A stretch of DNA of 64,000 nucleotides from JAWCQZ01 sp038869515 [NCBI: Halobacteria archaeon] (GTDB taxonomy: Archaea; Halobacteriota; Syntropharchaeia; JACQPP01). Made by a program: the position numbers and the translations under genes. Where the stretch lies: the NCBI GenBank assembly GCA_038869515.1, contig JAWCQZ010000010.1, positions 7,757-71,756 of the forward strand, written 5' to 3'. A model generated the notes under the pieces. It did not search any database. It saw nothing but the letters and a program-made list of their open reading frames with translations, and was not told the DNA's origin. Shown in pieces: positions 44,419 to 56,985 of the stretch (the stretch's first letter is position 1; every line of letters begins with the position of its first letter).

Positions 44419-44456
44419 GGCTGCTTCTCGGCCCGCGGGCCCATAAGGCTTCCATC

Positions 44457-44474
44457 GTCACTCGGGGAAGTGAC
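44457..44474 (-). promoter_or_regulatory. operator site a (nirK)
   Basis: GTCACT-CGGGGA-AGTGAC, a perfect 6-bp inverted repeat with a 6-base spacer. Read in the nirK direction, the TTAT of the TATA box follows the last half-site after exactly 10 bases (AGTGAC-N8-CC-TTATGG). It is one of six such sites between 44.4 and 56.9 kb. Confidence 0.8.
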
Positions 44475-44648
44475 AAGTTGCCCTCCTCCCCGGACCCTTC
44501 GGACCTTTCGGCTCGCTGCATGCCGCTTCCGGGAGACATCGGGACCGGTCCGGGGCCGTCCGGCCCATCCTTCGGCCGCGACGGTGCCCTTCATGCCCCG
44601 CTACCGGCAGGGCGGAGGGCATTTAAGCGGAGTTTCGCACCTCTCTCC

Positions 44649-44942
44649 ATGCCCGAAAAGGCCTCCATGGAGTGCGCCTTCTGCAAGGGCCCCGTGGGCT
44701 TCGACCAGCTCTTCACCTTCATCAAGGCGGGCCCCGTCCACTTCGACTGCTTCCGCAAGGATGCGGAGGGGCGCAAGGCCCCGAAAGTCCTCGCGGACCT
44801 CCTGGAGGCCGAACTCAAACTGCTGGTGGCCTACAAGGTCGCGGCCAAGTCGGCCGACGGGGACCTGAAGGCCCTCTTGGAGGCCCAGGGGAAGGACGCG
44901 GAGAGGCACGCCGCCCTGCTGACCAAGCGCCTCTCGGGCTGA
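44649..44942 (+). CDS. DUF2175-like zinc-binding protein
   Basis: A 97-residue protein. CAFCKGPVGFDQLFTFIKAGPVHFDCF is a CxxC...HxxC metal site of the kind seen in DUF2175 proteins. The C-terminal half is helical (LADLLEAELKLLVAYKVAAK). CATTTAAG (about 44619-44626) is a TATA box 26 bases before ATG 44649. It is convergent with the stress-protein gene downstream. The function is unknown. Confidence 0.8.
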   Translation: MPEKASMECAFCKGPVGFDQLFTFIKAGPVHFDCFRKDAEGRKAPKVLADLLEAELKLLVAYKVAAKSADGDLKALLEAQGKDAERHAALLTKRLSG

Positions 44943-44946
44943 CCCC

Positions 44947-45417
44947 TCACTTCACCACCAGGACCGACACCTTGGCCTCGTGGACCACGGCGCCGGAGAC
45001 GCTGCCGAGGAAAAGGCGGCCGATGCCCGAGAGCCCCCGGGAGCCCACGACCAGCAGGTCGAACTTCCCCTTCTCGGCGAACTTGAGAATTTGGGTGGGG
45101 ACGTGCCCCTCCTGGATTCGGGTCTCAGCCTCCACCTTCTGCCGCCGCGCCAGGTCGGCCACCCGGTCCAGCACCTTGCGGGCCTCCGCCAAGAGGTGCT
45201 GGCGGAGGTCCTCACTGTAGTCGAAGGCCCCTCCCCCCGCCATGAAGACCCCCGCGTTGTAGACCTGCGCCGGGACGTGGACCACCGAGACGAAGGTGAG
45301 GGAGGCCCCGGTCTCCCGGGCGAGGGAGACGGCCGCCGCCGCAGCCCGGACCGCGGGCTCCGAGCCGTCCACGGCGGCGAGGATGCTCCGGAATGAGGAG
45401 GTCTTGGGGGCGGCCAT
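44947..45417 (-). CDS. universal stress protein (UspA family)
   Basis: A 156-residue single-domain Usp. ILAAVDGSEPAVRAA opens the Rossmann-like fold, and the ATP-binding loop VGSRGLSGIGRLFLGSVS matches G-2x-G-9x-G-S. It ends VSVLVVK. It follows a small membrane-protein gene by one base and is under operator b. Its 44981-45112 segment is identical in DNA to part of the Usp gene at 53026-53433. Confidence 0.93.
   Translation of the reverse strand: MAAPKTSSFRSILAAVDGSEPAVRAAAAAVSLARETGASLTFVSVVHVPAQVYNAGVFMAGGGAFDYSEDLRQHLLAEARKVLDRVADLARRQKVEAETRIQEGHVPTQILKFAEKGKFDLLVVGSRGLSGIGRLFLGSVSGAVVHEAKVSVLVVK
44981..45112. repeat. 132-bp exact repeat, copy 1
   Basis: This stretch of the Usp gene is identical, base for base by eye, to 53060-53191 in the Usp gene 8 kb away, while the flanks of the two genes differ strongly. 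It encodes the ATP-loop half of the protein. It indicates recent gene conversion or partial duplication. Confidence 0.85.
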
Positions 45418-45418
45418 C

Positions 45419-45586
45419 TCAGGTCCGGATTCGCGCCACAGCGGCGAGCAGGACCATGAGGAAACCCACGATGACCGCCGCGGCGGCCACAGCCAGCAGG
45501 AGGAGACTGTCGAGGCCCAAGTCCTCCCCCGGGAGGGCGTGGACCGGGTCGGCGGTCCGGTCGCGGAGAATCGTCTCCATGGTCAT
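45419..45586 (-). CDS. small single-helix membrane protein
   Basis: A 55-residue protein with a short charged N-terminus and one transmembrane helix (about 28-50, LLLLAVAAAAVIVGFLMVLLAA). ATG 45586 lies 26 bases from CTTATGG (45607-45613), so it is leaderless; ATG 45580 or 45610 are less well placed. It is the first gene after operator b and precedes the Usp gene by one base. Confidence 0.65.
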   Translation of the reverse strand: MTMETILRDRTADPVHALPGEDLGLDSLLLLAVAAAAVIVGFLMVLLAAVARIRT

Positions 45587-45622
45587 ATCTGAGTTCCCGG
45601 GAATCTCCATAAGGACTTCTCC

Positions 45623-45640
45623 GTCACCGGTGAGAGTGAC
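45623..45640 (-). promoter_or_regulatory. operator site b (small membrane protein-Usp unit)
   Basis: GTCACC-GGTGAG-AGTGAC. In the transcription direction the last half-site GGTGAC is followed after 10 bases by TTAT of CCTTATGG, the same spacing as at the other operators. Confidence 0.8.
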
Positions 45641-45649
45641 ACCCCGCCC

Positions 45650-45904
45650 TCACCCGTGGGGACGCCCGGGGGTGCGGCGTGCGCGACCTTCCGGGAAGGC
45701 GTTCCGGGCCAGGCTCCGGAGACCGGTGCCGAGGAGCGCGAGGCCCGCTCCGAGGCCCGCGACCTGGAACAGGAGGAAGGGGGCCCCACTCTCCACCGGG
45801 GCCTGGAGCCCTTTGGCGAGGGCGGAGGCCGCCAGCCCCGCCAGGGCCAGGCCGAGAACCACGAGAAGCCCATCGGCCGCGTCCTGCGAAGGGGCGCCCT
45901 CCAT
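45650..45904 (-). CDS. small two-helix membrane protein
   Basis: An 84-residue protein with two transmembrane helices (about 12-28 and 42-60) and a basic tail. ATG 45904 is placed 28 bases from GTTATCGG, under operator c. The frame is open further upstream without a stop to ATG 46129, which overlaps the stop of gene 46126-46284 as ATGA. A longer 159-residue read-through product is therefore possible, although it would cross operator c. No family is recognised. Confidence 0.6.
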   Translation of the reverse strand: MEGAPSQDAADGLLVVLGLALAGLAASALAKGLQAPVESGAPFLLFQVAGLGAGLALLGTGLRSLARNAFPEGRARRTPGRPHG

Positions 45905-45942
45905 CCGCCTACGGCACCCTCCCGCCCGATAACTCCGGCTGT

Positions 45943-45960
45943 GTAACCGGCAGGGGTGAC
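45943..45960 (-). promoter_or_regulatory. operator site c
   Basis: GTAACC-GGCAGG-GGTGAC, the same element with one mismatch in the promoter-proximal half. In the leftward direction TTAT of AGTTATCGG follows after exactly 10 bases, and the ATG (45904) lies 28 bases beyond. Confidence 0.75.
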
Positions 45961-46125
45961 AAAACTCCTGCCCCCCGGCCGGGTCCCCCGTGGCGCCGAT
46001 GGGGGCCCGGGCCGCACGCACCCGGAGAAAGGCGCGAAGGGCGGCGACGGGGCGGAGCCATTTCTGCCAGCGGGCCCAGGTGAAGGCGGTGTCGAAGGCC
46101 GCCGCCAGGGCGATGCCCGGCGCAA

Positions 46126-46284
46126 TCATGGCGCGCCTCCCGCCCGCGGCATCGGGAGCCCGTGGGAAGCGTCCATCCGCCGGAACAGGAGGCAAAGGGG
46201 GCCCAGGAGGACCGGCGCCGCCAGGAGGAATGGGGCGGCGATGGGCCGCAGGACGCGGGTCGCCGCCCCGGCGAGCCTCGCCAT
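46126..46284 (-). CDS. 52-residue membrane peptide
   Basis: A short frame from ATG 46284 with one long hydrophobic segment (PIAAPFLLAAPVLLGPLCLLF) followed by a hydrophilic tail. Its stop overlaps an ATG at 46129 (ATGA) that opens a frame continuing into the 45650-45904 gene. A T-tract at 46316-46320 may be part of its promoter. The function is unknown. Confidence 0.5.
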   Translation of the reverse strand: MARLAGAATRVLRPIAAPFLLAAPVLLGPLCLLFRRMDASHGLPMPRAGGAP

Positions 46285-46373
46285 CCGGGGGTTCGGGCCA
46301 CGGTCCCTCGCCCCCTTTTTCCCGCGTCGCCTTATGCCGGTTTCAGCGGGAAGATGGGCAGCCCCTCAGGAAT

Positions 46374-47678
46374 CTACGTAGGGGACCCCTTCGGGACGAA
46401 GAGCCGGGAGGCGAGGAGCCCCAGGGCCACCATCCCCAAGCCGAAGCTGGCCCCGTGCCACCCGGTGCAGAGGAGGAGAGCGAGGCAGGTGGCCGCCCCC
46501 GCGGCGGGCAGGAGGGCGCGCTTCCCGCTGCCCGGGGCCTCTCCCCTCCGCCAGAGCACCAGGAGGGCGAGGTTCACCATGGTGAAGAGAAGGAGGACCG
46601 CCCCGTTGCTCAGTTCGGCGACGGTGGTCAGGTCCCCCAGAAGGGCGAAGCCGGCGGCCAGGAGGGCGGCGGCGACGGTGGCGGCCCAGGGGGTGCGGCG
46701 GCGGCCCACCCTCCCGAGCCACCGGGGGAGGGCGCCCGCCTGCCCCATCCCATAGAGGTTCCGCGAGACCGAGAGCATCATCAGGAGGACCGTGTTCGCG
46801 GTGGCGGCGAGGGCGAGGAGCACCAGGAGGAGTCCCGTCCGGGGACCCGCCACTGTGCCCACCATCAGGGCCAGGGGCGAAGCGCTTCCTTCGAGTTGTT
46901 GCCAGGGGACCGCGCTGACCACCGCGACCGCCACCAGGATGTAGATGGCCGTGGTGATGGCGACGGCGGTCAGGATGGCCCGCGGGAGGACCCGCTCGGG
47001 CTGGCGGGCCTCCTCCGCCATGTTGGCCAGCCCTTCGAACCCCAGGTAGGCGAAGAAGATGAGAGCCGCGGCCCCGCCGATGCCCGCGAGCCCGTGGGGC
47101 ATCTCCAGGTAGTCCGCCTCCCCCCAGCGGGGCAGGCCGAAGGCGATGACCAGCAGGAGCCCGAGCAGTTCGACCAGGGTGAAGGCCACCGCGAACCCGA
47201 CGGACTCCCGGATGCCGGCCCAGAGGAGGAGGCCGCACAGCCCGATGAGGAGGAGCGCGCCCGCAGCGAGAGGGAGGGGGAGGAGGACCTGGAGGTAGCC
47301 CGCGAATCCCAGGGAAATCGCTGCGATGGCCACCACGTTGGAGGCCGACATGACCCACCCTCCGATGAATCCGGCTCGCATCCCGAAGGCCGCCCGGAGA
47401 TACTGGAACTCGGCCGCGTTCCGGGGGTGGAGGGCGGAGAGGCGGGCGTAGGAGTGGGCCGTGAGCGCCGAGACGACTCCGGCGGCGAGGAACGCGAGCC
47501 AGAGCGCCCCGCCCGCCCTCCCTGCGGCGGGCCCGATGAGGGCGTAGATGCCGGCGCCCAGGATGACCCCGACCCCGGAGAGGGCGACGCCCCAGAAGCC
47601 GAGGCCGCGGCGGAGGCCGGGGGAGGAAGTGGAGCCCTCCGGAACGGCGGTCCCGCCTGCCTCAGCGGCCGACCCCAT
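46374..47678 (-). CDS. APC-family amino-acid permease
   Basis: A 434-residue transporter with twelve helices. The first helix has the APC signature GVGVILGAGIYALIGPAAG, and helix 6-7 carries GAAALIFFAYLGFEGLANMAEEARQPERVLPRAI, diagnostic of the family. The substrate is unknown. It is the last gene of the operon headed by hsp20. Its ATG shares a base with the AMP phosphorylase stop (TGATG), and a GTG start at 47681 is also possible. Confidence 0.9.
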   Translation of the reverse strand: MGSAAEAGGTAVPEGSTSSPGLRRGLGFWGVALSGVGVILGAGIYALIGPAAGRAGGALWLAFLAAGVVSALTAHSYARLSALHPRNAAEFQYLRAAFGMRAGFIGGWVMSASNVVAIAAISLGFAGYLQVLLPLPLAAGALLLIGLCGLLLWAGIRESVGFAVAFTLVELLGLLLVIAFGLPRWGEADYLEMPHGLAGIGGAAALIFFAYLGFEGLANMAEEARQPERVLPRAILTAVAITTAIYILVAVAVVSAVPWQQLEGSASPLALMVGTVAGPRTGLLLVLLALAATANTVLLMMLSVSRNLYGMGQAGALPRWLGRVGRRRTPWAATVAAALLAAGFALLGDLTTVAELSNGAVLLLFTMVNLALLVLWRRGEAPGSGKRALLPAAGAATCLALLLCTGWHGASFGLGMVALGLLASRLFVPKGSPT

Positions 47679-49225
47679 CACCGCTCCAGGATGAAGGGGC
47701 GCGGGTGGGGGACCCGCGCCGGAATCTTGTCAAGGAGCATCTTCTGCTCCAGCCCCCGGGCCACCACCACCGGCTCGCTCTCCGACGCCATCCGCAGGGC
47801 GTGCTCGATGCGGCTCCCGTTGCTGGAGAAGATGGAGAAGAGCAGGCCGCCCCGCTTGACGCGGGAGCCGGTCTTGACGTGGAGCAGGACCCCCGCCCCC
47901 GGGTCCCGGGGGGCCCCGGCCTCCCGGGCCACCGCCGCGATTTCGGCGTTTTTGACCCAGAGGACGCGCCCCTCCTTGGCGGCGCGGATGTTGGCGCGCC
48001 GCCCGATGGGAATGTCGGAGGGGCGGACCTCGGGGTCGCCCCCCTGCTCGGCGATGATTTGGCGCATCTTCGCCTCCGCCTTGCCGCTCCGGAGGAGCCT
48101 CCGGGCGTGCTCGGTCCCGGAGTTCCGCCCCTTGACCGTCTCAAACAGGAGTCCCGCGAGGCGGGTCGCTTTCTCCGCCAGGTCGGCCGGACCCCTCCCG
48201 CGGAGGGCCTCCAGGGCCTCCCGGGCCTCGAGGGCGGGCCCGATGGCGCGCCCCACAGGCTGCTCCCCCAGGGTCACGGCGCAGGCCACCTTCATTCCAA
48301 GGCGCCCCCCCAGGGCGATGAAGTCGCGGGCCAGGGCGTGGGCCTCCCCGACGGTCTTCACCTTGGCCCCCCGGCCCGTGGGGATGTCGAGGACCACGAA
48401 GCGGGCCCCCACCGCCTTCTTCTTCGAGAGGATGGAGGGCATGAGCAGGGGGTCGATGCTCAGGGGATACTCGACCTGGATGAAGAGATCGTCCGCCGGG
48501 GCGAGATTGAGGGCGCCCCCCCACGCGATGCAGCCGTGGGTCCTCTTCACCACCCGGAGAATCTCCTCCGCCTCCAGGGCCACCGGGGCGAGAACCTCGA
48601 AGCGGTCGGCGGTCCCCGCGGGGGAGGTGATGGCGCGGGAGGAGGTCTTGGGGATGGTGAGCCCCGCGGCGGCCACCAGCGGGACGACGAGCAGGGAGGT
48701 CTTGTCTCCCGGGATGCCACCGACGCTGTGCTTGTCCACCACGTTCCTCGCCGGCACCCGCAGGGTGCGCCCGGTCTCCAGCATCGCCCGGGAGAGGGCC
48801 TCGGCCTCCTCCAGGGACACGCCGTGGAGTTCCAGGGCCACCACGAAGGCCGTCAACTCCGGGTCGGAGAGGCGGCGGTCGAGCGCGTCGCGGACGATGG
48901 TCCCCATTTTTCCCCCGTCGAGGCGGTTCCCGGTCACCTTCTCCCGGATGTAGGCCACCGACTCCGGCCTCTCCCCGTGCTCGACGGCTACGGGGTCTCC
49001 CGGCCGTAGGCCGAAGAAACGGGTGACCGCGTCGCCGGTCACCAACTCCCCCGGCTCGGCGAACCGCGCCGTGATGTCGGCGATGGCCGAGAGGGAGCGG
49101 CCCCGGTTCCGCAACTCGACCCGGTCGAGGGCGTGGATGGAGAGGGCCTCGGCGTCCTGCTTGTTCAGGATGACGAAGGGCTTCCCCCCGGCCTCGAGGC
49201 TCAGCGGGCGGGCGCGCAGCCTCAT
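47678..49225 (-). CDS. deoA: AMP phosphorylase
   Basis: A 515-residue archaeal AMP phosphorylase that converts AMP (or CMP, UMP) and phosphate to base and ribose-1,5-bisphosphate. An N-terminal ~80-residue swapped beta domain is typical of the archaeal type. The nucleoside-phosphorylase core follows (ARNVVDKHSVGGIPGDKTSLLVVP; KTSSRAITSPAGTAD), with a C-terminal domain beginning ANIRAAKEGRVLWV. It overlaps the RuBisCO gene by ATGA and forms the first step of the AMP pathway with the two genes upstream. Confidence 0.94.
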   Translation of the reverse strand: MRLRARPLSLEAGGKPFVILNKQDAEALSIHALDRVELRNRGRSLSAIADITARFAEPGELVTGDAVTRFFGLRPGDPVAVEHGERPESVAYIREKVTGNRLDGGKMGTIVRDALDRRLSDPELTAFVVALELHGVSLEEAEALSRAMLETGRTLRVPARNVVDKHSVGGIPGDKTSLLVVPLVAAAGLTIPKTSSRAITSPAGTADRFEVLAPVALEAEEILRVVKRTHGCIAWGGALNLAPADDLFIQVEYPLSIDPLLMPSILSKKKAVGARFVVLDIPTGRGAKVKTVGEAHALARDFIALGGRLGMKVACAVTLGEQPVGRAIGPALEAREALEALRGRGPADLAEKATRLAGLLFETVKGRNSGTEHARRLLRSGKAEAKMRQIIAEQGGDPEVRPSDIPIGRRANIRAAKEGRVLWVKNAEIAAVAREAGAPRDPGAGVLLHVKTGSRVKRGGLLFSIFSSNGSRIEHALRMASESEPVVVARGLEQKMLLDKIPARVPHPRPFILER

Positions 49226-50574
49226 CTCGGCCTCCTCCGGCCCCACGTTTCAAGAGCCTGGCGCAGGGCGGGGGAGGAGCGGGCAGCCGACGCCGGCGAG
49301 CGCCCCTCCATGAACGCATCCACCGCGTCCCGCACCGCCCGGGCCCCCGCCCCGCTGCCCCCGGGGTGGCCGTGGACCCCGCCCCCCATCTGGAGGACGA
49401 GGTCCGCCCCCATGCGGCCGAGGAGCGGCGCCGCGATGCCGGGGTGGACGCCCCCTGATGCCACCGGCAGGACGGGGAGCATGGCCCCCCACTCCTCGCC
49501 GAGGGTGTGGAGGGAGGGGTTCGGCGGGACGCGGGAGAACCTCCGGTGGTTCCGCCGCTCGCCCGGCGGGTGGGGCGGCTCCGCGAGGTGGACCTGGATT
49601 TGACGAACCTCGCCGGGCGCGCCCTCCAGTTTCCCCGCGCCCGCGGTCCCGACGTGGAGCTGGTCGGCGCCGAGGAGGCGCGCGATTTCCGCCACCGCGA
49701 GCATGGACATGCCGTGGCGCGGGTTGCGGGTGAAGGCGGCGTGGAAGGCGCGGTGGGCGTGGATGGCGAGGCCCAGGTCGCCGCACGCCTCCCGCAGGCT
49801 GCGGAGGGCGAGCCAGCCCGTGGTCAGGATGTCCACCATGGCGTAGCGCCCCCCGTGGCGGGCGACGAGGCGGGCCCGCCGCTCCATCTCCCGGAGGGTC
49901 GGGGCGGTGACGTTGACCAGGTAGTCCTTGCGCTCGCCGGTCGCCTCCTCGATGCGGTCGCGGATGCGGAGGGCGAGGGCCACCCGCCTTCCGAAGGGGT
50001 TGAACCTCTGCCCCGCCAGGTTCTCGTCGTCCTTGAGGAGGTCGAGCCCCCCGGTCCAGATTTGGCGCGCGATCTCGCAGTGCTCCGCCGTGGTCAGCCC
50101 CACCTTGGGCTTCGGGACCGTGGCGAGGAGGGGCCGCTCGGGCACCCCCATCGCCTTGCGGACCCCGTCAATGCCGAACCGGGGCCCCGGGAAGGAGTCG
50201 CGGAGGGCGCGCGGCCACCGGATGTCCTGGAGGCGGAGGCTCGCCACAGCCTTCATCCCGAAGACGTTGCCCGCCACCGAGGCGAGGACCTGCGGCATGT
50301 TCCCCCGCTCGAAGTGCTGCAGAGGGTAGGCGATGCGGGCCCAGACCGCCGACCCCTCCCGCTCCATCGCGTAGACCCGCGCCCCCACCCGGCGGACGTG
50401 GGGATGGCAGAGGCCCCGGAGGCGGGTCCAGGTCCCCACCGAACTCTCGGCCGCCACGGCCCCGGCAGCCCGCTCTGCGCTCTCTCCCCGGGGCACCCCG
50501 ATGCGGAAGGAGGCGAGCAGGTCCGAAGGGCGGGGCCGGTAGCCGAGGTCCACGAAATCCTCGTAGCCCGTCAT
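49222..50574 (-). CDS. rbcL: ribulose-1,5-bisphosphate carboxylase, form III
   Basis: A 450-residue archaeal RuBisCO large subunit. Active-site residues are intact: K155 and K157 in VPKPKVGL, the carbamylated K181 with D183 and E184 in GGLDLLKDDEN, HAHRAFHAAFTR (H272/H274), loop-6 K315 in GTAGAGKLEG, S373 in PVASGG and the phosphate loop QMGGGVHGHPGG. A ~25-residue charged insertion (about 335-360) follows loop 6. It carboxylates RuBP made from AMP, giving two 3-phosphoglycerates. It is coupled by ATGA overlaps to isomerase and AMP phosphorylase genes. Confidence 0.95.
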   Translation of the reverse strand: MTGYEDFVDLGYRPRPSDLLASFRIGVPRGESAERAAGAVAAESSVGTWTRLRGLCHPHVRRVGARVYAMEREGSAVWARIAYPLQHFERGNMPQVLASVAGNVFGMKAVASLRLQDIRWPRALRDSFPGPRFGIDGVRKAMGVPERPLLATVPKPKVGLTTAEHCEIARQIWTGGLDLLKDDENLAGQRFNPFGRRVALALRIRDRIEEATGERKDYLVNVTAPTLREMERRARLVARHGGRYAMVDILTTGWLALRSLREACGDLGLAIHAHRAFHAAFTRNPRHGMSMLAVAEIARLLGADQLHVGTAGAGKLEGAPGEVRQIQVHLAEPPHPPGERRNHRRFSRVPPNPSLHTLGEEWGAMLPVLPVASGGVHPGIAAPLLGRMGADLVLQMGGGVHGHPGGSGAGARAVRDAVDAFMEGRSPASAARSSPALRQALETWGRRRPR

Positions 50575-51431
50575 CGCAGCTCCCGGAGTCTCCGGACCAC
50601 GGCGGCGGGCGTCCGGACCCCCTCCTCGGTGACGACGCGGCTCACCCGCTCCCACGGGGTGACGTCGAAAGCCGGGTTGAAGACGCGGACCCCGGCGAGG
50701 CGGCGGTGGACTTCGGCGGGGGGGCGCTCCTCGATGACCAGGCGGGGGCGACGGTCCATCTTGAGGGCGCTCGCCGCCACCACGAAGGGGCGCCCGTGCT
50801 CCCGGGCGGCGAGGGCGAGGAGGGAGGTTCCGATCTTGTTCACCACTCCCGCCGGGGGCCGGGACCGCAGGGCGTCGGCCCCCACCAAGACCAAGTCGGC
50901 CCGGGCCACCGCCGCTCCCATCGCGGGGTCGGGGACGAGGGTCACCGGAATCCCCGCGCTCCGCAGTTGCTTCGCGGTCCGGATGCCCTGGCGCACCGGC
51001 TCCGTCACGGTGGCGATGGCCGAGAACCTCCGGCCCCGCCTCCACGCCTCCTCCAGGATGGAGAGGGCCTCTCCGGAGTGGCAGTGGGTCAGGACGGCGG
51101 CTCCGGTGCGGACGAGGGGTGCCCCCGAAGCGGCGACGCGCCGGGTCGAGTCGCGCAACTGCGAGAGGAGGGCGTCGAGGGAACGGAGACCGGGCTCCTC
51201 CCGGAGGGCCTCGAGGCAGTTGTGGAGGACCGCCGCCGTGGGCCGCGCCTCCTCCATGCGGCGCGCGAGAAGCCAGAACCCCCGGCCGAACCCCTCCCGC
51301 TCCGCGACCCCCCGGAGGTGGAGGAGGCTCCGGAGGGCGATCTCCTTGGCCCCCTGGATGCGAAGGTCCTTCAGCCTCCGGAGGAACGCGCCGGAACTCT
51401 CCGTCCCGCGGAAGCGGTCACCGGACGACAA
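50571..51431 (-). CDS. ribose-1,5-bisphosphate isomerase
   Basis: A 286-residue member of the eIF2B/MtnA-like isomerase fold. The catalytic Cys is in VLTHCHSGEAL and the Asp in LVLVGADALRSR, with the helical N-terminus LKDLRIQGAKEIALRSL. It isomerises ribose-1,5-bisphosphate to ribulose-1,5-bisphosphate, linking AMP phosphorylase to RuBisCO. The best start is TTG 51431, 13 bases inside the upstream Usp gene. The open frame to 51584 is antisense-like and not protein-like, and no ATG/GTG is in frame nearby. Confidence 0.9.
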   Translation of the reverse strand: MSSGDRFRGTESSGAFLRRLKDLRIQGAKEIALRSLLHLRGVAEREGFGRGFWLLARRMEEARPTAAVLHNCLEALREEPGLRSLDALLSQLRDSTRRVAASGAPLVRTGAAVLTHCHSGEALSILEEAWRRGRRFSAIATVTEPVRQGIRTAKQLRSAGIPVTLVPDPAMGAAVARADLVLVGADALRSRPPAGVVNKIGTSLLALAAREHGRPFVVAASALKMDRRPRLVIEERPPAEVHRRLAGVRVFNPAFDVTPWERVSRVVTEEGVRTPAAVVRRLRELR

Positions 51432-51864
51432 GCACGGAGCCTCCGGTCCCCCGCGCCACGGCCCACGAGACCCTTCCCGGAAGCGCGGCAGGGAGGCCCG
51501 AGAGGCCCCGGCGCCCCACCACGACGAGGTCGCAGCGGAGGCTCCGTGCCGCCTTCGCGATTTCGCGGGCCGGGCTCCCCTCAACGATGCGCGTCTCCAC
51601 CCGGGCCCTCCGGGAGCGCCCCCGCCCCACCCGCTCCAGGAGCCGCTCGGCCTGGCGCTTCCACTCCTCCCGGACAGACCGGAGGTAGGACTCGGGCAGG
51701 AAGTCCCGGAAGGGCCAGGGCATCTCGACGACGTGGAGCAGGGTCACGCGCGCCCCCGTGGCGGCGGCGAGGTCGAGGGCGAACCGGGCTGCCCTGATGG
51801 AGGGCTCCGAGCCGTCCACGGCGGCGAGGATTCGGCGCGGGGCTCCGCCGGGGAGCCGGCTCAT
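51418..51864 (-). CDS. universal stress protein
   Basis: A 148-residue Usp: RRILAAVDGSEPSIRAA at the start and VGRRGLSGLPAALPGRVSWAV as the nucleotide loop. In the loop the usual G-9x-G-S end is altered (PGRVS), so ATP binding may be weakened. It overlaps the Usp gene upstream by ATGA and the isomerase gene downstream by 14 bases. Confidence 0.9.
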   Translation of the reverse strand: MSRLPGGAPRRILAAVDGSEPSIRAARFALDLAAATGARVTLLHVVEMPWPFRDFLPESYLRSVREEWKRQAERLLERVGRGRSRRARVETRIVEGSPAREIAKAARSLRCDLVVVGRRGLSGLPAALPGRVSWAVARGTGGSVLVVR

Positions 51865-52334
51865 TTCACGACCAGCACCGACACCTTCGACTGCTGGACC
51901 AGGGCGCTGGAGACGCTCCCCAGGAACATCCGGTCCACGCCCGAGAGGCCCCGGGAGCCCACCACCAGCAGGTCGAAGTTCCCCTTGTCGGCGAAGCGGG
52001 CGATTTCAACGGCGGGGTGGCCGTGGAGAACCCTGACCTTCGCATCCAGCCCCTCCCTGCGGGCCATGGGCACCACCCGGGCCAGGGCCTCCCGGGCCTC
52101 CTCCGCAAGATAGTCCTCCACATCCCTGGACACGGCGGTGGCGTACTCCGGGGCGACAGGGACTTGGACCACGGTCGCCGCCGTCAAGTCGGCCCCCGAC
52201 ATCGCCGCAAGGTCGACGGCCACCCGGGCCGCCTTCATGGAGGCCTCGGAGCCGTCCACGGCCACGAGGACCCTCTCGAGAGGGCGGATGGGGGGTCCCT
52301 CCATGGCTTCCCCGTGGACTCCAAGCGCCTTCAT
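51861..52334 (-). CDS. universal stress protein
   Basis: A 157-residue Usp with RVLVAVDGSEASMKAARVAV and the full ATP loop VGSRGLSGVDRMFLGSVS, ending VSVLVVK. An internal ATG at 52304 (MEGPPIRP) is an alternative start. It lies 55 bases after hsp20 and is followed without a gap by another Usp gene, so it is in the operon under operator d. Confidence 0.92.
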   Translation of the reverse strand: MKALGVHGEAMEGPPIRPLERVLVAVDGSEASMKAARVAVDLAAMSGADLTAATVVQVPVAPEYATAVSRDVEDYLAEEAREALARVVPMARREGLDAKVRVLHGHPAVEIARFADKGNFDLLVVGSRGLSGVDRMFLGSVSSALVQQSKVSVLVVK

Positions 52335-52389
52335 CCTCTCTCTGTCGCGGGGCGGGGTTACACCCGAGGCCGAGGTTCCAGGGCGGGGC

Positions 52390-52959
52390 TCAATCCACCC
52401 GGACCTTCCGGCTCCCGGGCTTCTTTCCCGCCCTCTCCAGGACCACCTGGAGGACTCCGTTCTTGCAGGTCGCCTTGGCCGTCTCGGGCTTCACCGGACA
52501 GGGGAGGTCCACTTCCCGGAAATATTTCCGGTCCTTGCGGTCCACCCGGATGGTCACCTGCTCCTCGGAGGTCTCCAGATGAACGTCCTCCTTCTCGACT
52601 CCCGGAACTTCGGCGGTCACGGTGACGGTCTTTTCGTTCTCCATGACGTCCACCAGGGGCTCCCGGGTCCCCGGCTCCAGGGCGGTCCGCGCCGGGGAGA
52701 CGAGGCCGGGGACGTTGCCGAACTCCTCGAAGCGGGGCTTGCCCCTGTCGTCCACCCGGAAGGTCCAGCCGTAGACGCAGGGGCCCCCCTTCTCCGGCGG
52801 AGGCAACTCCCCCCTCCGGGCCTGCTCCACGAGGCGGCCCATGTGGCGTCGCATGCGGGCGAACTGGTCGTCCACGTCGTCGAAGAAGTCCCGGAAGCCG
52901 AAGAGGTCGTCGAAGTCCCACTCGATGGGGCGGCTCCTGGGGATTTTGCGTGGCTCCAT
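52390..52959 (-). CDS. hsp20: Hsp20 small heat-shock protein
   Basis: A 189-residue small heat-shock protein. A ~100-residue N-terminal arm rich in Asp/Phe (WDFDDLFGFRDFFDDVDDQF) precedes the alpha-crystallin domain (about 108-185), with VTAEVPGVEKEDVHLE, DRKYFREVDLPCPV and the GVLQVVL motif. It is an ATP-independent holdase. ATG 52959 is leaderless, 30 bases from CCTTTTTGACC. A start at 53004 would lie inside operator d. It heads a seven-gene operon running to the APC permease. Confidence 0.93.
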   Translation of the reverse strand: MEPRKIPRSRPIEWDFDDLFGFRDFFDDVDDQFARMRRHMGRLVEQARRGELPPPEKGGPCVYGWTFRVDDRGKPRFEEFGNVPGLVSPARTALEPGTREPLVDVMENEKTVTVTAEVPGVEKEDVHLETSEEQVTIRVDRKDRKYFREVDLPCPVKPETAKATCKNGVLQVVLERAGKKPGSRKVRVD

Positions 52960-52999
52960 CGCCGAGGCAACTCTCCCGGAGGTCAAAAAGGGTTGCTCT

Positions 53000-53017
53000 G
53001 TCACCGGCAGGGGTGAC
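53000..53017 (-). promoter_or_regulatory. operator site d (hsp20-usp-RuBisCO operon)
   Basis: GTCACC-GGCAGG-GGTGAC, perfect, extended to TGTCACC...GGTGACA. In the leftward direction TTTTT of CCTTTTTGACC follows the last half-site after 10 bases. It is the clearest copy of the motif. Confidence 0.85.
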
Positions 53018-53025
53018 AGCGGGGT

Positions 53026-53433
53026 CTACCGCACGACGAGAACCGAGGTCTTGGCGTGCTGGACCACGGCGCCGGAGACGCTGCCGAGGAAAAGGCGGCC
53101 GATGCCCGAGAGCCCCCGGGAGCCCACGACCAGCAGGTCGAACTTCCCCTTCTCGGCGAACTTGAGAATTTGGGTGGGGACGTGCCCCTCCACGACCCTG
53201 GTCTTCACGGCGACCCGGTCCCTCCGCGCCTGCTCCTCGACGCGCCGGAGGGTCTTCTCCGCCATCTTGCGGACTTCGACCCGGAGCTCCTGCAGGTACT
53301 CGAGGGGCGCCCGGGGGGGCTCGACCACCATCACGGCGGTGAGGGGGGAGCCGGTGGAGCGGGCGATGCGGGCCGCCATCTTCGCGGCCCGGAGGGCGTG
53401 GGCCGAGCCGTCCACGGCCACCAGGATCTTCAT
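53026..53433 (-). CDS. universal stress protein
   Basis: A 135-residue Usp starting MKILVAVDGSAHALRAAKMA, with ATP loop VGSRGLSGIGRLFLGSVS. Residues encoded by 53060-53191 match the Usp at 44947-45417 exactly at the DNA level. It is the last gene of the unit under operator e, and its stop lies 9 bases from operator d. Confidence 0.93.
   Translation of the reverse strand: MKILVAVDGSAHALRAAKMAARIARSTGSPLTAVMVVEPPRAPLEYLQELRVEVRKMAEKTLRRVEEQARRDRVAVKTRVVEGHVPTQILKFAEKGKFDLLVVGSRGLSGIGRLFLGSVSGAVVQHAKTSVLVVR
53060..53191. repeat. 132-bp exact repeat, copy 2
   Basis: Identical by eye to 44981-45112 within another Usp gene; the sequence diverges immediately outside both ends. Confidence 0.85.
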
Positions 53434-53440
53434 GGCCCCT

Positions 53441-53842
53441 CTATCCGTGCTGGGGGACGATAAGGATTGGGGTCCGGGCGACGTTCATCACGTCCTGGGC
53501 GGTGGACTGGTGGACGAACCGATAGATGCGGTCGTACTGGAAGTGGCCCATCACGATCATGTCGTAGCCGAGGCCGAGGCGGGCGACCCGCTCGGCGAGT
53601 GCCTCGGGCCCCCCCGACACCTCCTCCACGACGAAGGTCGCCTTCACCCCCTTGTCCCGGCAGAGCTCCTCGATGCGCGCGAGCCCCCGCCGCCGGAGCT
53701 CCTTGATCTCCCGGAGCTCGCTCTTCGGGTTGAGGGTCACCACCTTGAGGCTCGCCCCGAGGGCCTTGGCGTAGGCGATGGCGGCCATCATCAGCGTGTC
53801 GGACTCCCGGAGGGGGTTCACCGGGACGAGGATCTTCTTCAT
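53441..53842 (-). CDS. divergent universal stress protein
   Basis: A 133-residue UspA-fold protein (KKILVPVNPLRESDTLMMAA start, LIVPQHG end). The nucleotide loop reads MGHFQYDRIYRFVHQSTAQDV, keeping the position but not the usual G-2x-G-9x-G-S pattern, so it probably does not bind ATP in the standard way. It lies 7 bases before the Usp gene at 53433 on the same strand. Confidence 0.85.
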   Translation of the reverse strand: MKKILVPVNPLRESDTLMMAAIAYAKALGASLKVVTLNPKSELREIKELRRRGLARIEELCRDKGVKATFVVEEVSGGPEALAERVARLGLGYDMIVMGHFQYDRIYRFVHQSTAQDVMNVARTPILIVPQHG

Positions 53843-53882
53843 CGGCCGCCCCGGAGAGGGGGCCGAAGAGCGACGGGGTCGC

Positions 53883-54224
53883 TCATGTCCGGCCCCTCCC
53901 GTCGCCCTCGAGGGCGGCCTTGAGCTCCTTGTGCCTCTCGGCGATGATTTTCTTGAACGCCTTCGTCTCCTTCCGGATGCGGCGGGCGGTCTCCCTGTCC
54001 CCCAGGTAGTCCACCCAGTCGGCCACCCACCCCGCCTGCTCCTCCGTGAACTTCTCGAGGTGGGCATGGAGTTCGTCGAAGTTCCGGATGGCGAGGTCGC
54101 GGAGGTAGTAGGGCTCCCGCCCGGTGGGGTGGAACAGTTTCCGCGCCACGTCGGCGGCGGGGCGGGCCGCGGGGGGGAGGACCGAGGGGCGCGCGGCCTC
54201 CCGGGCCCTGGGGCCCTTTGCCAT
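53883..54224 (-). CDS. hypothetical protein of the stress island
   Basis: A 113-residue soluble helical protein. The basic N-terminus is disordered-looking. The core FHPTGREPYYLRDLAIRNFDELHAHLEKF and WVADWVDYLGDRETARRIRKE suggests a compact helical fold similar to small DUF5752-like proteins, but I am not certain of the family. It begins one base after the zinc-finger gene and shares its unit under operator e. Confidence 0.7.
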   Translation of the reverse strand: MAKGPRAREAARPSVLPPAARPAADVARKLFHPTGREPYYLRDLAIRNFDELHAHLEKFTEEQAGWVADWVDYLGDRETARRIRKETKAFKKIIAERHKELKAALEGDGRGRT

Positions 54225-54225
54225 C

Positions 54226-54378
54226 TCAGGAGACCTCCTCGAGTTCCGCCCGGGGATCGAAGAGGCGCCGGTCGAAGGTGGAGGCGCACCGACCGGAGCA
54301 GAAGTGGCGATCCCGCCACATCAGTTTCCGGGTGATGGGCTCGGAGAGAACGGACCTTCCGCACACTTCGCAGTTCAT
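54226..54378 (-). CDS. 50-residue TRASH/MYM-like zinc finger
   Basis: A small protein with CEVCGRSVL at the N-terminus and FCSGRCASTFD about 22 residues later, the four-cysteine layout of TRASH/YHS-type metal-binding fingers. These modules sense or carry heavy metals in archaea. ATG 54378 overlaps the stop of the upstream gene as ATGA, and the next gene begins one base after its stop. Confidence 0.75.
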   Translation of the reverse strand: MNCEVCGRSVLSEPITRKLMWRDRHFCSGRCASTFDRRLFDPRAELEEVS

Positions 54379-54899
54379 GCGCTGGCCTCCTCGCAGAGGC
54401 CCCCGCGCACTCCTGAATTCAACCGGTGGGACTCTCCAGCGTTCCGGGCCCCGGCGCACTCCCTGAGCCAGGCGTCGAGGAGCATCCAGAAGTGCTCCAG
54501 CGCCTCGGCGGCCTCGGATCCCCGGCCCGAGCGGCCGAGCCTCCAGACATCCTCCCAGAGGGCGCGGACCTCCCGGGAGGCGCCGGTGTCGGCGGGCAGG
54601 TTCTGCGCGCACCGGAGGAATTCCAGGTCCGCCTCGGCGAGGAGAAGGAGGGCGGGGCCGGATGGGAGGGTCTCTGCGAGTCCTTCCAGAAGGTCGTAGA
54701 GCACGGGGGGCGGCCCCGCCGCCAGTTGCGGGCCGGGGGAGACCCCCCCTCGCGCCTTGCGGCGCTCGCCGCCTCGCGCTGCGCGCAAGATGACTCCGCG
54801 GCCCCGGTCCGTCCGCCTTGCGGCGGGCGGGCGCCGGCGCGCGTCTCCGGCGTCTGCGCCGGGTTCCGGGAGGGGTCTTCCATGGTCCCAGTCGCCCAT
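54375..54899 (-). CDS. hypothetical helical protein with a disturbed N-terminus
   Basis: The C-terminal ~110 residues are a normal-looking helical protein (VLYDLLEGLAETLPSGPALLLLAEADLEFLRCAQN, EALEHFWMLLDAWLRECAG). The N-terminal ~65 residues are Arg/Gly/Pro-rich. They are encoded by sequence with repeated CCTTGCGGCG words and hairpins (54753-54870). The predicted transcript start (about 54888) lies after ATG 54899; the next ATG, 54883, is in another frame. An insertion or frameshift near the 5' end is likely; GTG 54704 is an alternative start. Family unknown. Confidence 0.45.
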   Translation of the reverse strand: MGDWDHGRPLPEPGADAGDARRRPPAARRTDRGRGVILRAARGGERRKARGGVSPGPQLAAGPPPVLYDLLEGLAETLPSGPALLLLAEADLEFLRCAQNLPADTGASREVRALWEDVWRLGRSGRGSEAAEALEHFWMLLDAWLRECAGARNAGESHRLNSGVRGGLCEEASA

Positions 54900-54927
54900 C
54901 CTCGCGGAATTCCAAAAGGGCTCGTCT

Positions 54928-54945
54928 GTCACCGGCGAGGAGGAC
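54928..54945. promoter_or_regulatory. operator site e between the stress operon and trmB-like gene
   Basis: GTCACC-GGCGAG-GAGGAC: the half nearest the leftward promoter is perfect, the other degenerate. Leftward, TTTT of CCCTTTTGG follows after 10 bases. Rightward, the possible TATA of the regulator gene (GTTTTTCC, about 54948-54955) starts only a few bases away, so binding here would cover it. Confidence 0.7.
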
Positions 54946-54976
54946 ATGTTTTTCCCCCTCCCGCCGAAGGGGGTCC

Positions 54977-56146
54977 ATGGCCCCCGACTCCACTTCCCCG
55001 CTCCAGAGGCTCCTCGACCTGGGTCTCACCGAGTACCAGGCCAAGGTCTACCTCGCTCTCCTGAAGGCGGGCGCGGCGACGGCGAGCCAGTTGACCTCCT
55101 TGTGCGACGTCCCGAGGACCCGCATCTACCCGACCATGGAGCAGTTGCACGAGAAGGGGCTGGCGAACGTCCTCCCCGAGACCCCCATCCGCTACCGCCC
55201 CGTCCCCATCGGGGACTATCTGGAGCGGCGGGCGCGAGAGATGCGGAGCCGGGCCGACGAGATGGACGCCCTCAAGGGGACCTACGCCGAGGCCTTCGCC
55301 ATCCGGGGCCAGGTGACCCCCGCCGCCGCGGGCTCCTTCGAGGTCCACCGGGGTCGGGACAACGCCCGGGAGAAACTGCTCCAGATGTGGGGCCGGGCGA
55401 GGAAATCGATCGAGTTCGTCGGGAGCGGCCACGCGCCCCCGCGCCTCCTGGGAAAACTCTACACCACGGCCCGGGAGCGGAGGCAGGCGGGGGCCAAGGT
55501 CCGCTTCATCTTCCCCCTCAAGACCCCCCACATGGAAAGGGTCAAGTCGGCGCTCTCCGATTTCGACGTCCGCTTCTCCCTGGAGGTCCCCCCGGTGGAC
55601 GTCTGCGTCACCGACGGCCGGGAGGTCATCCTCATCCACCGCATCCCCGACGACCCCGACCCCTACAAGGGGGAGGACGCCGCCATCTGGACCGACGACC
55701 CCGCCATCGGCGAGGCGCGGACCCGCCTCTTCGAGTCCTTCTGGAGGGACGCCTCGAGCCCGGAGCACCCGACCCTCGCCATGGTCCCCGCCGCCCTCCG
55801 GGACTGGCTGGAGGTGGAGGGGGTCAAGCCCAAGTTGGCGCTGGAGGGGATGGCCCGCAACCTCGGGACCCAGTTGGGCGCCTCGATGAAGAGCGAGACC
55901 GTCTCCGGCATCCTGAAGGAGTTGAATTCCATATTCACCGAAACCGACATTGCCAACGTCGGCAAGGGGAAGGGGAACCGGGTCTTCGTCCGGTGCCGCT
56001 ACCACGACATCACGGGAGCCTGCCCGGAGTACGACACCTTCTGCCGGACCCTCCTTCAGACGGTCTTCCGGGAGAAACTGGGCCCGGACGCCGTGAGCGA
56101 AATCACCCACACCCAGAGAGAGGGGTGCTCGGTCGAACTGAAATAG
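54977..56146 (+). CDS. TrmB-family transcriptional regulator with a Cys-rich C-terminal domain
   Basis: A 389-residue regulator. Residues ~8-75 form a TrmB winged helix (LGLTEYQAKVYLALLKAGAATASQL, RIYPTMEQLHEKGLA). The TrmB effector/PLD-like domain follows (about 110-265; FEVHRGRDNAREKLLQM, KSIEFVGSG, DVCVTDGREVILIHR). A ~110-residue C-terminal domain ends RYHDITGACPEYDTFCRTLL...REGCSVELK with several cysteines, like V4R/heme- or metal-sensing output domains. It is divergent from the stress operon across operator e, the classic position for the regulator of that operator. Confidence 0.85.
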   Translation: MAPDSTSPLQRLLDLGLTEYQAKVYLALLKAGAATASQLTSLCDVPRTRIYPTMEQLHEKGLANVLPETPIRYRPVPIGDYLERRAREMRSRADEMDALKGTYAEAFAIRGQVTPAAAGSFEVHRGRDNAREKLLQMWGRARKSIEFVGSGHAPPRLLGKLYTTARERRQAGAKVRFIFPLKTPHMERVKSALSDFDVRFSLEVPPVDVCVTDGREVILIHRIPDDPDPYKGEDAAIWTDDPAIGEARTRLFESFWRDASSPEHPTLAMVPAALRDWLEVEGVKPKLALEGMARNLGTQLGASMKSETVSGILKELNSIFTETDIANVGKGKGNRVFVRCRYHDITGACPEYDTFCRTLLQTVFREKLGPDAVSEITHTQREGCSVELK

Positions 56147-56163
56147 GGGCGGGGGCCCCGGGG

Positions 56164-56610
56164 TCACTTCCCTTCCCCGTTCAGGCGGGCATTCAGGGAC
56201 TCAAGCAGGTTGAGGAGCTCCATCAGGTCCCGGACCCTCCCCTCCACCTTCGCCCGGCCGTCGAAGTAGGCCTCCGAGAGAACTCCGGCCGGGTGGCCCA
56301 GGAGGGCCTGCCGGGCGGCGAGGGGGCCCAGGATGACCCGGGTGGAGGCCGACTCCGCGTGGGGTCCTCTCACCACTTTGCCCCGGCGGATCCGGACGCA
56401 GGCGAGGGTCTCTCCCGCGTCCGACTCGAAGGCGACGTGGAGGTCGGGGGTCCGCGCCACGTCCCCCGCCAGGGGGCCCCGGGGGCGGGCGAAGGCCTCG
56501 AGGGCGTCGAAGAGGAGGTGGAAGTCCGCCGCCGAGCCCTTGCCCTTCCGCCGCAGTTCCCGGAGGTCCCGGACGGGCTCCCGGTCGGCCCCCCGAACCT
56601 TCGGCGTCAT
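56164..56610 (-). CDS. SCP2-like lipid-binding domain protein
   Basis: A 148-residue protein with the SCP2 sterol-carrier pattern: a short helix (LLFDALEAFARPR), a five-stranded sheet (DLHVAFESDAGETLACVRIRRGKVV, STRVILGPLAARQALLG) and the final YFDGRAKVEGRVRDLMELLNLL. Members bind lipids or act as accessory domains. It is convergent with the TrmB-like gene (18-base gap). The promoter is unclear because an inverted-repeat element occupies the upstream region. Confidence 0.7.
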   Translation of the reverse strand: MTPKVRGADREPVRDLRELRRKGKGSAADFHLLFDALEAFARPRGPLAGDVARTPDLHVAFESDAGETLACVRIRRGKVVRGPHAESASTRVILGPLAARQALLGHPAGVLSEAYFDGRAKVEGRVRDLMELLNLLESLNARLNGEGK

Positions 56611-56985
56611 GGGACGCTCCTCCCGGGGAGGGAATTGCGGAAGACCGGCCCCGGGAAGAGCGGGGGTCGAGGGGGGCCGAAGCGAGTGGCCCCCGCGGGG
56701 GTTCTTGGCGTCGCAGCCTCACGGCGAGGGGATGCTCCTGTTCCCGGGGCCGGTCTTTCCCGGGAGCGTCGTTGTCCGGTGGTCATGGGCTCCCATCCGG
56801 AATTGGGCGGGGGACCGGATGACCTGTTCTCCGTCACCGAAGATGGTGACAGTCCTCCCGGGAAGGCCCACGCAAGAATGGGCCGGGCGATGCAGGCGCG
56901 GGGCCACCCCCGATTGGGCGGTAGTCAAAAAGTGCCCCGGAGATGGCGACCCCAGGATTCAATAGGGGCGGGCCCATCCCGCTCC
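56611..56985. other. non-coding region with inverted-repeat element and operator f
   Basis: GGAAGACCGGCCCCGGGAA (56639-56657) and TTCCCGGGGCCGGTCTTTCC (56741-56760) are complementary except for one base, enclosing GGGGGCC-GAAGCGAGT-GGCCCCC (about 56673-56695). The GAAGCGAG loop word also occurs in the 15-bp stem at 41399-41439 (as CTCGCTTC). Operator f follows at 56833, then a possible TATA (TTCAATAG, about 56957-56964) of the Nudix gene. A 25-codon frame (56719-56796, minus) has the right distance from operator f but no protein character. Confidence 0.5.
56833..56850 (-). promoter_or_regulatory. operator site f (orphan or decayed promoter)
   Basis: GTCACC-GAAGAT-GGTGAC is a perfect inverted repeat. 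Read leftward, the position of the TATA box 10 bases on reads GGTCATCC, a weak version. No intact gene follows at the usual 26-30 bases; the nearest minus-strand gene starts at 56610. It may be a promoter whose gene was displaced by the inverted-repeat element. Confidence 0.65.

What the first reader, a model, noticed from the sequence alone, without database searches (positions are those of the whole stretch)
44457..56850. Undescribed regulon: GTCACC-N6-GGTGAC operators at fixed spacing before stress, nitrite-reductase and RuBisCO operons
Seen: six inverted repeats (44457, 45623, 45943, 53000, 54928, 56833) share GTCACC-N6-GGTGAC. Five precede consecutive minus-strand units: nirK; a membrane peptide plus Usp; a second membrane peptide; hsp20-usp-usp-isomerase-rbcL-deoA-permease; and the five-gene stress unit ending in a Usp. 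In all five the promoter-proximal half-site is followed after exactly 10 bases by TTAT or TTTT of the TATA box, and the start codon usually follows 26-30 bases later. I saw no other copies outside this island. Inference: an activator (or repressor) binding upstream of the BRE controls all units together, joining nitrite respiration, universal stress proteins and AMP-derived RuBisCO metabolism.
Basis: partly seen in the sequence, partly recalled or inferred. Interest (0 to 1): 0.93.

Follow-up and report, generated by a model that had tools for sequence, protein, structure and literature searches.

The report
Local TrmB operator island in archaea
A run of neighbouring archaeal genes for nitrite reduction, stress proteins and an AMP-recycling RuBisCO pathway carries the same DNA switch at nearly the same place in each promoter, and a rare, possibly redox-sensing regulator gene in the middle of the run is the likely hand on that switch.

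Summary
The palindromes are real: GTNACY-N6-RGTNAC occurs 5 times exactly in the window against 0.06 expected, all within 44.4-56.9 kb, plus a weaker sixth site (54928). In five of six the proximal arm is followed after exactly 10 bases by TTAT/TTTT. Only two sites are exact GTCACC-N6-GGTGAC; 56833 lacks that TATA. The one relative found with the TrmB-like gene (69% identity; G001/L001) keeps the operator at two orthologous promoters, trmB and a small gene beside it. A matrix trained only on the window ranks three L001 sites first, within 4.2 kb; in that genome the only two exact matches lie on the trmB contig. But nirK (84% identical), hsp20 and usp homologues there carry no operator, and RuBisCO was not found. 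So this is a local regulon around trmB, conserved in its core but not its membership. Position upstream of the TATA box favours activation. The regulator joins a TrmB reader to a Cys-bearing tail partly related to an ArsR-V4R (MsvR-type) regulator; redox or NO sensing is inferred. New variant of a known kind.

The parts
44457..44474 (-). operator of nirK, GTCACTTCCCCGAGTGAC; TTAT at 44443-44446
45623..45640 (-). operator of membrane peptide + usp unit, GTCACTCTCACCGGTGAC; TTAT at 45609-45612
45943..45960 (-). operator of second membrane peptide, GTCACCCCTGCCGGTTAC; TTAT at 45929-45932
53000..53017 (-). operator of hsp20-usp-usp-isomerase-rbcL-AMP phosphorylase-permease unit, GTCACCCCTGCCGGTGAC; TTTTT at 52985-52989
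54928..54945 (-). operator between trmB (+) and the five-gene stress unit (-), GTCCTCCTCGCCGGTGAC; TTTT at 54914-54917 on minus, TTTTT 3 bases away on plus
   Evidence: conserved in L001 at 9935
56833..56850 (-). operator upstream of the small conserved gene, GTCACCATCTTCGGTGAC; TCAT at the TATA position
   Evidence: conserved in L001 at 12556 with TTAT
54977..56146 (+). TrmB-like regulator, 389 aa: TrmB winged helix (Pfam PF01978), middle domain, Cys-bearing C-terminal domain whose helical part is related to an ArsR-V4R regulator
42889..44418 (-). nirK, copper nitrite reductase with N-terminal cupredoxin
   Evidence: TIGR02376 354 bits, cutoff 296; cupredoxin Pfam matches
45419..45586 (-). 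55-aa membrane-type peptide (by eye), no family match
44947..45417 (-). universal stress protein
   Evidence: PF00582
45650..45904 (-). 84-aa membrane-type peptide (by eye), no family match
52390..52959 (-). Hsp20
   Evidence: PF00011
51861..52334 (-). universal stress protein
   Evidence: PF00582 117 bits
51418..51864 (-). universal stress protein
   Evidence: PF00582 107 bits
50571..51500 (-). ribose-1,5-bisphosphate isomerase-like protein (start approximate)
   Evidence: PF01008; TIGR00511 170 bits, below its cutoff of 314
49222..50574 (-). type III RuBisCO large chain
   Evidence: TIGR03326 545 bits, cutoff 497
47678..49246 (-). AMP phosphorylase
   Evidence: TIGR03327 583 bits, cutoff 535
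46374..47681 (-). amino-acid permease
   Evidence: PF13520
54375..54899 (-). first gene of the five-gene stress unit, no family match; start uncertain
54226..54378 (-). small TRASH-domain-like protein
   Evidence: PF24273 25.8 and PF08394 24.8 bits, just under their cutoff of 27
53883..54224 (-). 113-aa protein, no family match
53441..53800 (-). Usp-like protein
   Evidence: PF00582 37 bits
53026..53433 (-). universal stress protein
   Evidence: PF00582 118.7 bits
56164..56610 (-). 148-aa conserved protein, 51% identical over 132 aa to the L001 gene at the same place; no family match above cutoff

Best explanation
The palindromes are operators of the TrmB-family protein encoded at 54977-56146. 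A dimer reads the two GTNACY arms about two helical turns upstream of the TATA box, just outside the BRE, and most likely helps TBP/TFB to bind, so that the minus-strand units from nirK to the small gene at 56.6 kb are switched on together. The regulator's C-terminal domain, with four cysteines kept in both known orthologues and a helical part related to an ArsR-V4R (MsvR-type) regulator, probably senses a redox or nitrosative signal. Shown: the motif, spacing, clustering with trmB in two genomes, conservation at two orthologous promoters, domain make-up. Inferred: that TrmB binds, that it activates, what it senses. The confidence is for TrmB control through these operators with either sign; repression (first rival) is a share of it.
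For: 5 exact sites against 0.06 expected. TATA at exactly +10 in 5 of 6 sites. A window-only PWM ranks L001 sites 14134, 12556, 9935 at 16.8, 16.7, 15.1, next best 10.8. In G001 (1.5 Mb held) the only two exact matches are on the trmB contig, and the site before trmB is a one-mismatch match. Of 98 oriented contexts, both strands of all 49 matches in G001 at up to one mismatch, two have TTAT/TTTT at +10, both on the trmB contig: L001 9935 plus and 12556 minus. Operator kept at the orthologous promoters of trmB and of the small gene (proteins 51% identical). Operator-to-start distance is alike: 38, 36, 38, 40 in the window, 39 for trmB (GTG) and 35 for the PhoU-domain gene in L001. TrmB winged helix 68 bits. 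TrmB relatives activate from sites upstream of BRE/TATA: review PMC4158304 and OxsR PMC9426492 (passages read). C-terminal kinship with the ArsR-V4R protein of G336: hhalign 91% over 47 columns, shuffle Z 12.4.
Against: No binding or expression data. One relative only carries the full regulator: 1 of 58 genomes of its class at E<=1e-20; 3 of 392 of the phylum sample at E<=1e-25, the other two 27-30% identical over residues 8-262 only; so conservation rests on one comparison, with a MAG of unknown completeness. nirK, hsp20 and usp homologues in G001 have no operator. 56833 has no clear TATA at +10, and L001 14134 has ATAT or GTAT there. The minus side of L001 9935 has CAATATAAA at +10 and no clear gene start found behind it. 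The Cys half of the C-terminal domain shows no significant similarity to V4R by sequence (Z about -1), Pfam V4R does not match, and fold matches are weak. MsvR represses from sites upstream of TATA (PMC3729527), so position does not prove activation.
Confidence: 0.68

Rival explanations
1. Same regulator and operators, but it represses: the bound dimer blocks TFB/BRE access, and a signal releases it to switch the island on. (A share of the 0.68 above, about three tenths.)
For: MsvR represses from boxes upstream of TATA (PMC3729527, passages), and the regulator's tail is partly related to an ArsR-V4R protein of MsvR-like build. In the window trmB's own TTTTT lies only 3 bases from operator 54928, a place where binding should occlude TBP.
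Against: The ten-base gap leaves room for the BRE, is kept in 5 of 6 window units, and the place matches activating sites of TrmBL1/Tgr and OxsR. In L001 trmB's own TTTTT is at +10.
Confidence: 0.2
2. The operators belong to another regulator not encoded here, and trmB is just one of its targets.
For: trmB in L001 has an operator at its own promoter like any target; no binding test exists.
Against: In G001 the three good sites lie within 4.2 kb around trmB, and no other of the 49 one-mismatch matches has the promoter spacing, which is the pattern of a local regulator.
Confidence: 0.12
3. The palindromes are not operators but RNA hairpins (terminators of the upstream unit) or remnants of a small mobile repeat.
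For: Two sites lie just behind the stop codon of the preceding minus-strand gene: 45623 (9 bases) and 53000 (8 bases); the arms could pair.
Against: The T-rich word is 10 bases away rather than directly behind the stem; spacing to the next start codon is nearly fixed; arms are kept while most spacers differ; site 54928 lies between divergent genes, where no terminator is needed.
Confidence: 0.05

Closest known systems
TrmBL1/Tgr and the Thermococcales glycolytic motif (TATCAC-N5-GTGATA)
   Same: TrmB-family winged helix; inverted repeat with TCAC...GTGA half-sites; sites upstream of BRE/TATA go with activation (PMC4158304, passages read).
   Different: Here GTCACY-N6-RGTGAC, TCAC and GTGA three bases further apart; genes are stress, nitrite and AMP/RuBisCO genes rather than sugar genes; a different C-terminal domain; the regulon looks like a local island.
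OxsR of Haloferax volcanii
   Same: TrmB-family protein, thiol-dependent, activates from a palindromic motif upstream of BRE/TATA (PMC9426492, passages read).
   Different: OxsR is a single winged-helix domain with a different, CG-rich motif; its key Cys is at the predicted dimer interface, not in a C-terminal domain.
MsvR of methanogens
   Same: Regulator with a V4R domain whose cysteines matter for redox-dependent binding, inverted repeat upstream of TATA, autoregulated (PMC3729527, passages read). The regulator here shares a helical segment with an ArsR-V4R protein of G336 that has the same domain build; I did not compare it with MsvR itself.
   Different: MsvR reads DNA with an ArsR-type helix-turn-helix, its motif is TTCG-based, and it represses.
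DosR/OsdR dormancy regulons of actinobacteria
   Same: Many Usps and small heat-shock genes under one hypoxia/NO-linked switch (search listing and abstract openings only; gene content otherwise recalled).
   Different: Response regulator of a two-component system, bacterial promoters; resemblance is in gene content alone.

Membership tests
TrmB family of archaeal regulators | TrmB winged helix PF01978 | tested here: met
   68.3 bits against a cutoff of 25.6; PDB match to TrmBL2 5bpd, E 4e-10
TrmB family of archaeal regulators | sugar-binding C-terminal domain of TrmB/TrmBL1 | tested here: not met
   Of the TrmB-type models only the winged helix matched in Pfam; NCBIfam TrmBL1 matched residues 9-105 only, 48.7 of 650 bits
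TGM regulon | TATCAC-N5-GTGATA operator | tested here: not met
   Sites read GTNACY-N6-RGTNAC; half-site core shared, spacing not
TrmB-type activation | operator upstream of BRE/TATA | tested here: met
   TATA-like word at +10 from the proximal arm in 5 of 6 sites
MsvR | ArsR-type helix-turn-helix | tested here: not met
   TrmB winged helix instead
V4R domain | match to PF02830 | tested here: not met
   No match at E up to 5 for residues 242-389
V4R/H-NOX/Bet3 fold | same fold (that these share a fold is recalled) | tested here: inconclusive
   H-NOX (3tfd Z 5.5, rmsd 2.7, 78 aligned), YslB (3njc 5.4, 4.4, 102) and Bet3 complex (2j3w 5.3, 4.4, 103) appear behind ribosomal S6 permutants (6i6y 7.4, 2.5, 77)
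Regulon conserved in relatives | operator at orthologous promoters | tested here: inconclusive
   Kept at trmB and the small gene; absent at nirK, hsp20, usp
Type III RuBisCO/AMP pathway | AMP phosphorylase, isomerase and type III RuBisCO together | tested here: met
   TIGR03327 and TIGR03326 above cutoff; isomerase TIGR00511 its best match but below cutoff
Activator function | TrmB binding raises transcription | not testable with these tools
   needs binding and transcription assays

The most novel reading that the evidence does not exclude
A chimera of a TrmB reader and an MsvR-type sensor tail, a kind of regulator I found no description of, senses redox state or nitric oxide through its cysteines and switches on an archaeal counterpart of the bacterial DosR dormancy regulon: nitrite reductase, five Usps, Hsp20 and the AMP-to-RuBisCO pathway together, tying carbon salvage from AMP to hypoxia or nitrite respiration. 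The regulon grows by genes moving next to trmB and gaining the operator.
Probability: 0.3. Interest if true: 0.78.

Novelty: new variant of a known kind. Interest (0 to 1): 0.6.

Why it matters
My searches of the open-licence library found no paper holding nirK, universal stress protein and TrmB (0) or AMP phosphorylase, RuBisCO, archaea and universal stress protein (0). Six hold TrmB, RuBisCO and archaea: five seen in the listing only; in the sixth, PMC4463584, the passages treat RuBisCO and TrmB as separate proteomic changes. If true, a single operator shared with nitrite reductase and stress genes would say when these cells use the AMP/RuBisCO pathway, and it can be tested with one purified protein and six promoters.

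Tried and rejected
Genome-wide regulon: not supported for G001, where one-mismatch matches number 49 against 63 for the reversed control, and 2 of 98 oriented contexts show TTAT/TTTT at +10. Exact motif across the class: 49 of 58 genomes have a match, with counts in the range of the reversed control (G001: 2 against 0) (the list of places was cut short, the per-genome counts were not). So the motif has weight only through its clustering.

Search for more trmB orthologues: genome contigs gave one locus out of 27 pattern stretches, with a query that finds close relatives only; class 1 of 58; phylum sample of 392 genomes; viral contigs none. RuBisCO in the class at E<=1e-20: 2 of 58 genomes, 41% identity, not G001; the DNA around those two scored 10.2 at best.

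Structure of the whole regulator: mean pLDDT 46, not used. C-terminal domain alone: pLDDT 75.7, pTM 0.70 from a two-sequence alignment; Foldseek gave nothing at E<=0.001; VIA rows stay under the level the tool calls trustworthy. A heme-type H-NOX reading was not pursued. The name SCP2-like for the small gene, used in my notes, is by eye and found no family support, so I do not use it. In drafting I wrote that the ten spacer bases often read RGAGAANNCC; only one of six does (45623), and three of six begin RGAG.
Full report
Setting. The window is 71% G+C and archaeal by its genes (TrmB, archaeal AMP phosphorylase, type III RuBisCO); no whole genome is held for it. The island runs from nirK at 42.9 kb to a small conserved gene at 56.6 kb. 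Each minus-strand unit that I recognise in it (units are inferred from gene order, not from transcripts) starts behind one of the six palindromes; trmB starts on the plus strand at 54977.

The motif. The shared form is GTNACY-N6-RGTNAC. It occurs five times exactly in 64 kb, all among the six sites; shuffles give 0.06 on average and at most 1 (100 shuffles). With one mismatch allowed there are 8 matches against 2.36 expected. The consensus was taken from the sites themselves, so I also made an independent test. A matrix from the six window sites was run on the 21-kb contig of a relative: the first three hits score 16.8, 16.7 and 15.1 and the fourth 10.8. In 20 Markov simulations of 64 kb the best chance score was 11.6 to 16.8, so a single site of 15-16 is not proof; three such sites within 4.2 kb around trmB are hard to get by chance (judgement, not computed).

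Promoter geometry. In 5 of 6 sites TTAT or TTTT begins exactly 10 bases after the proximal arm; this word starts at 0.15% of positions in the window. Three of the six ten-base spacers begin RGAG. The start codon lies 38, 36, 38 and 40 bases behind the site for four units, which with TATA at about -26 means leaderless transcripts (inference from archaeal promoter rules, PMC4158304). For 54928 the start is uncertain. 56833 has TCAT where the others have TTAT or TTTT, but its counterpart in L001 has TTAT there.

The regulator. The TrmB-like protein has a clear TrmB winged helix and matches TrmBL2 structures. Its last 120 residues are rare: of 392 genomes of the phylum sample two match at E<=1e-4, G001 strongly and G336 weakly (E 9e-5 for one genome). 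The G336 protein is an ArsR-type helix-turn-helix joined to a V4R domain (PF02830, E 3e-15), the build of MsvR. The shared part is the helical segment before V4R (hhalign 91%; shuffle Z 12.4). The Cys-bearing half, with C340, C349, C356 and C384 kept in both orthologues, is not significantly similar by sequence, and the fold comparison is only suggestive. I therefore call the tail partly related to V4R regulators, not a V4R member.

The relative. One public genome carries an orthologue at 69% identity (Euryarchaeota archaeon isolate NC_groundwater_1310, contig JACQPP010000123.1; G001). The small gene lies beside trmB in the same orientation in both; L001 has a GNAT gene between. The operator is kept at the trmB promoter and at the small gene's promoter. 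A third L001 site lies 35 bases before the ATG of a gene with MazE-type and PhoU domains. In G001 as held only the two latter sites match the motif exactly. Of 98 oriented contexts, both strands of all 49 one-mismatch matches, two have TTAT/TTTT at +10, and both are on the trmB contig.

Evidence against a fixed regulon. G001 has a nirK 84% identical to the window's whose surrounding 3.6 kb hold no operator (best PWM score 7.7) and whose upstream DNA has an ordinary TATA-like stretch. Its best hsp20 homologue (60%) and five usp homologues (32-46%) have no good site in the 2-3.5 kb around them (best 10.9; a second, 37% hsp20 homologue 13.1, downstream of the gene). RuBisCO was not found in G001 at E<=1e-20, but G001 is a MAG of unknown completeness. 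The simplest reading is a local regulon: genes that sit near trmB have operators, the same genes elsewhere do not. That this holds in the window's own genome beyond the 64 kb is untested.

How it most likely works. A TrmB dimer on the palindrome would sit just upstream of the BRE, about two helical turns from TATA, where TrmBL1, Tgr and OxsR activate. Given TrmB control I put activation ahead of repression at roughly seven to three; MsvR shows that sites upstream of TATA can also repress.

What the island would do. NirK, type III RuBisCO and AMP phosphorylase are above NCBIfam cutoffs; the isomerase is below its cutoff. With five Usp or Usp-like genes and Hsp20 the set recalls bacterial dormancy regulons such as DosR and OsdR (listing, gene content otherwise recalled). 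A redox or nitrosative signal is my guess from the cysteines and nirK; no call tests it.

Novelty. The parts are known kinds. New, as far as I searched, are the operator, the set of genes, the joining of a TrmB reader to a tail related to an ArsR-V4R regulator, and the spread of one operator over neighbouring units. Searches for TrmB with V4R gave two papers seen only in the listing; for nirK, Usp and TrmB none; for AMP phosphorylase, RuBisCO, archaea and Usp none. The library holds open-licence papers only.

Noticed in passing
42889-44418; L071: NirK carries a fused N-terminal cupredoxin in the window; the translation of the G001 orthologue looks, by eye, as if it had two such domains.
   Followed up: partly
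56700-56800; L001 12400-12520: The leader behind operator 56833 keeps a stretch coding for LPGKTGPG(N/D)R in both genomes, in frame with the small gene in L001 but not in the window; a leader peptide or a frameshift.
   Followed up: no
L001 16749-20067: Near trmB in the relative lies a molybdopterin enzyme with a Rieske_3 domain followed by a Rieske-like small protein (by eye), resembling arsenite oxidase; no good operator score there.
   Followed up: no
L001 14134-14151: Operator-like site before a gene with MazE-type and PhoU domains, a likely regulon member in the relative.
   Followed up: partly
44625-44942: DUF2175 gene divergent from nirK; no TTAT/TTTT within 50 bases on its side of operator 44457.
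   Followed up: no
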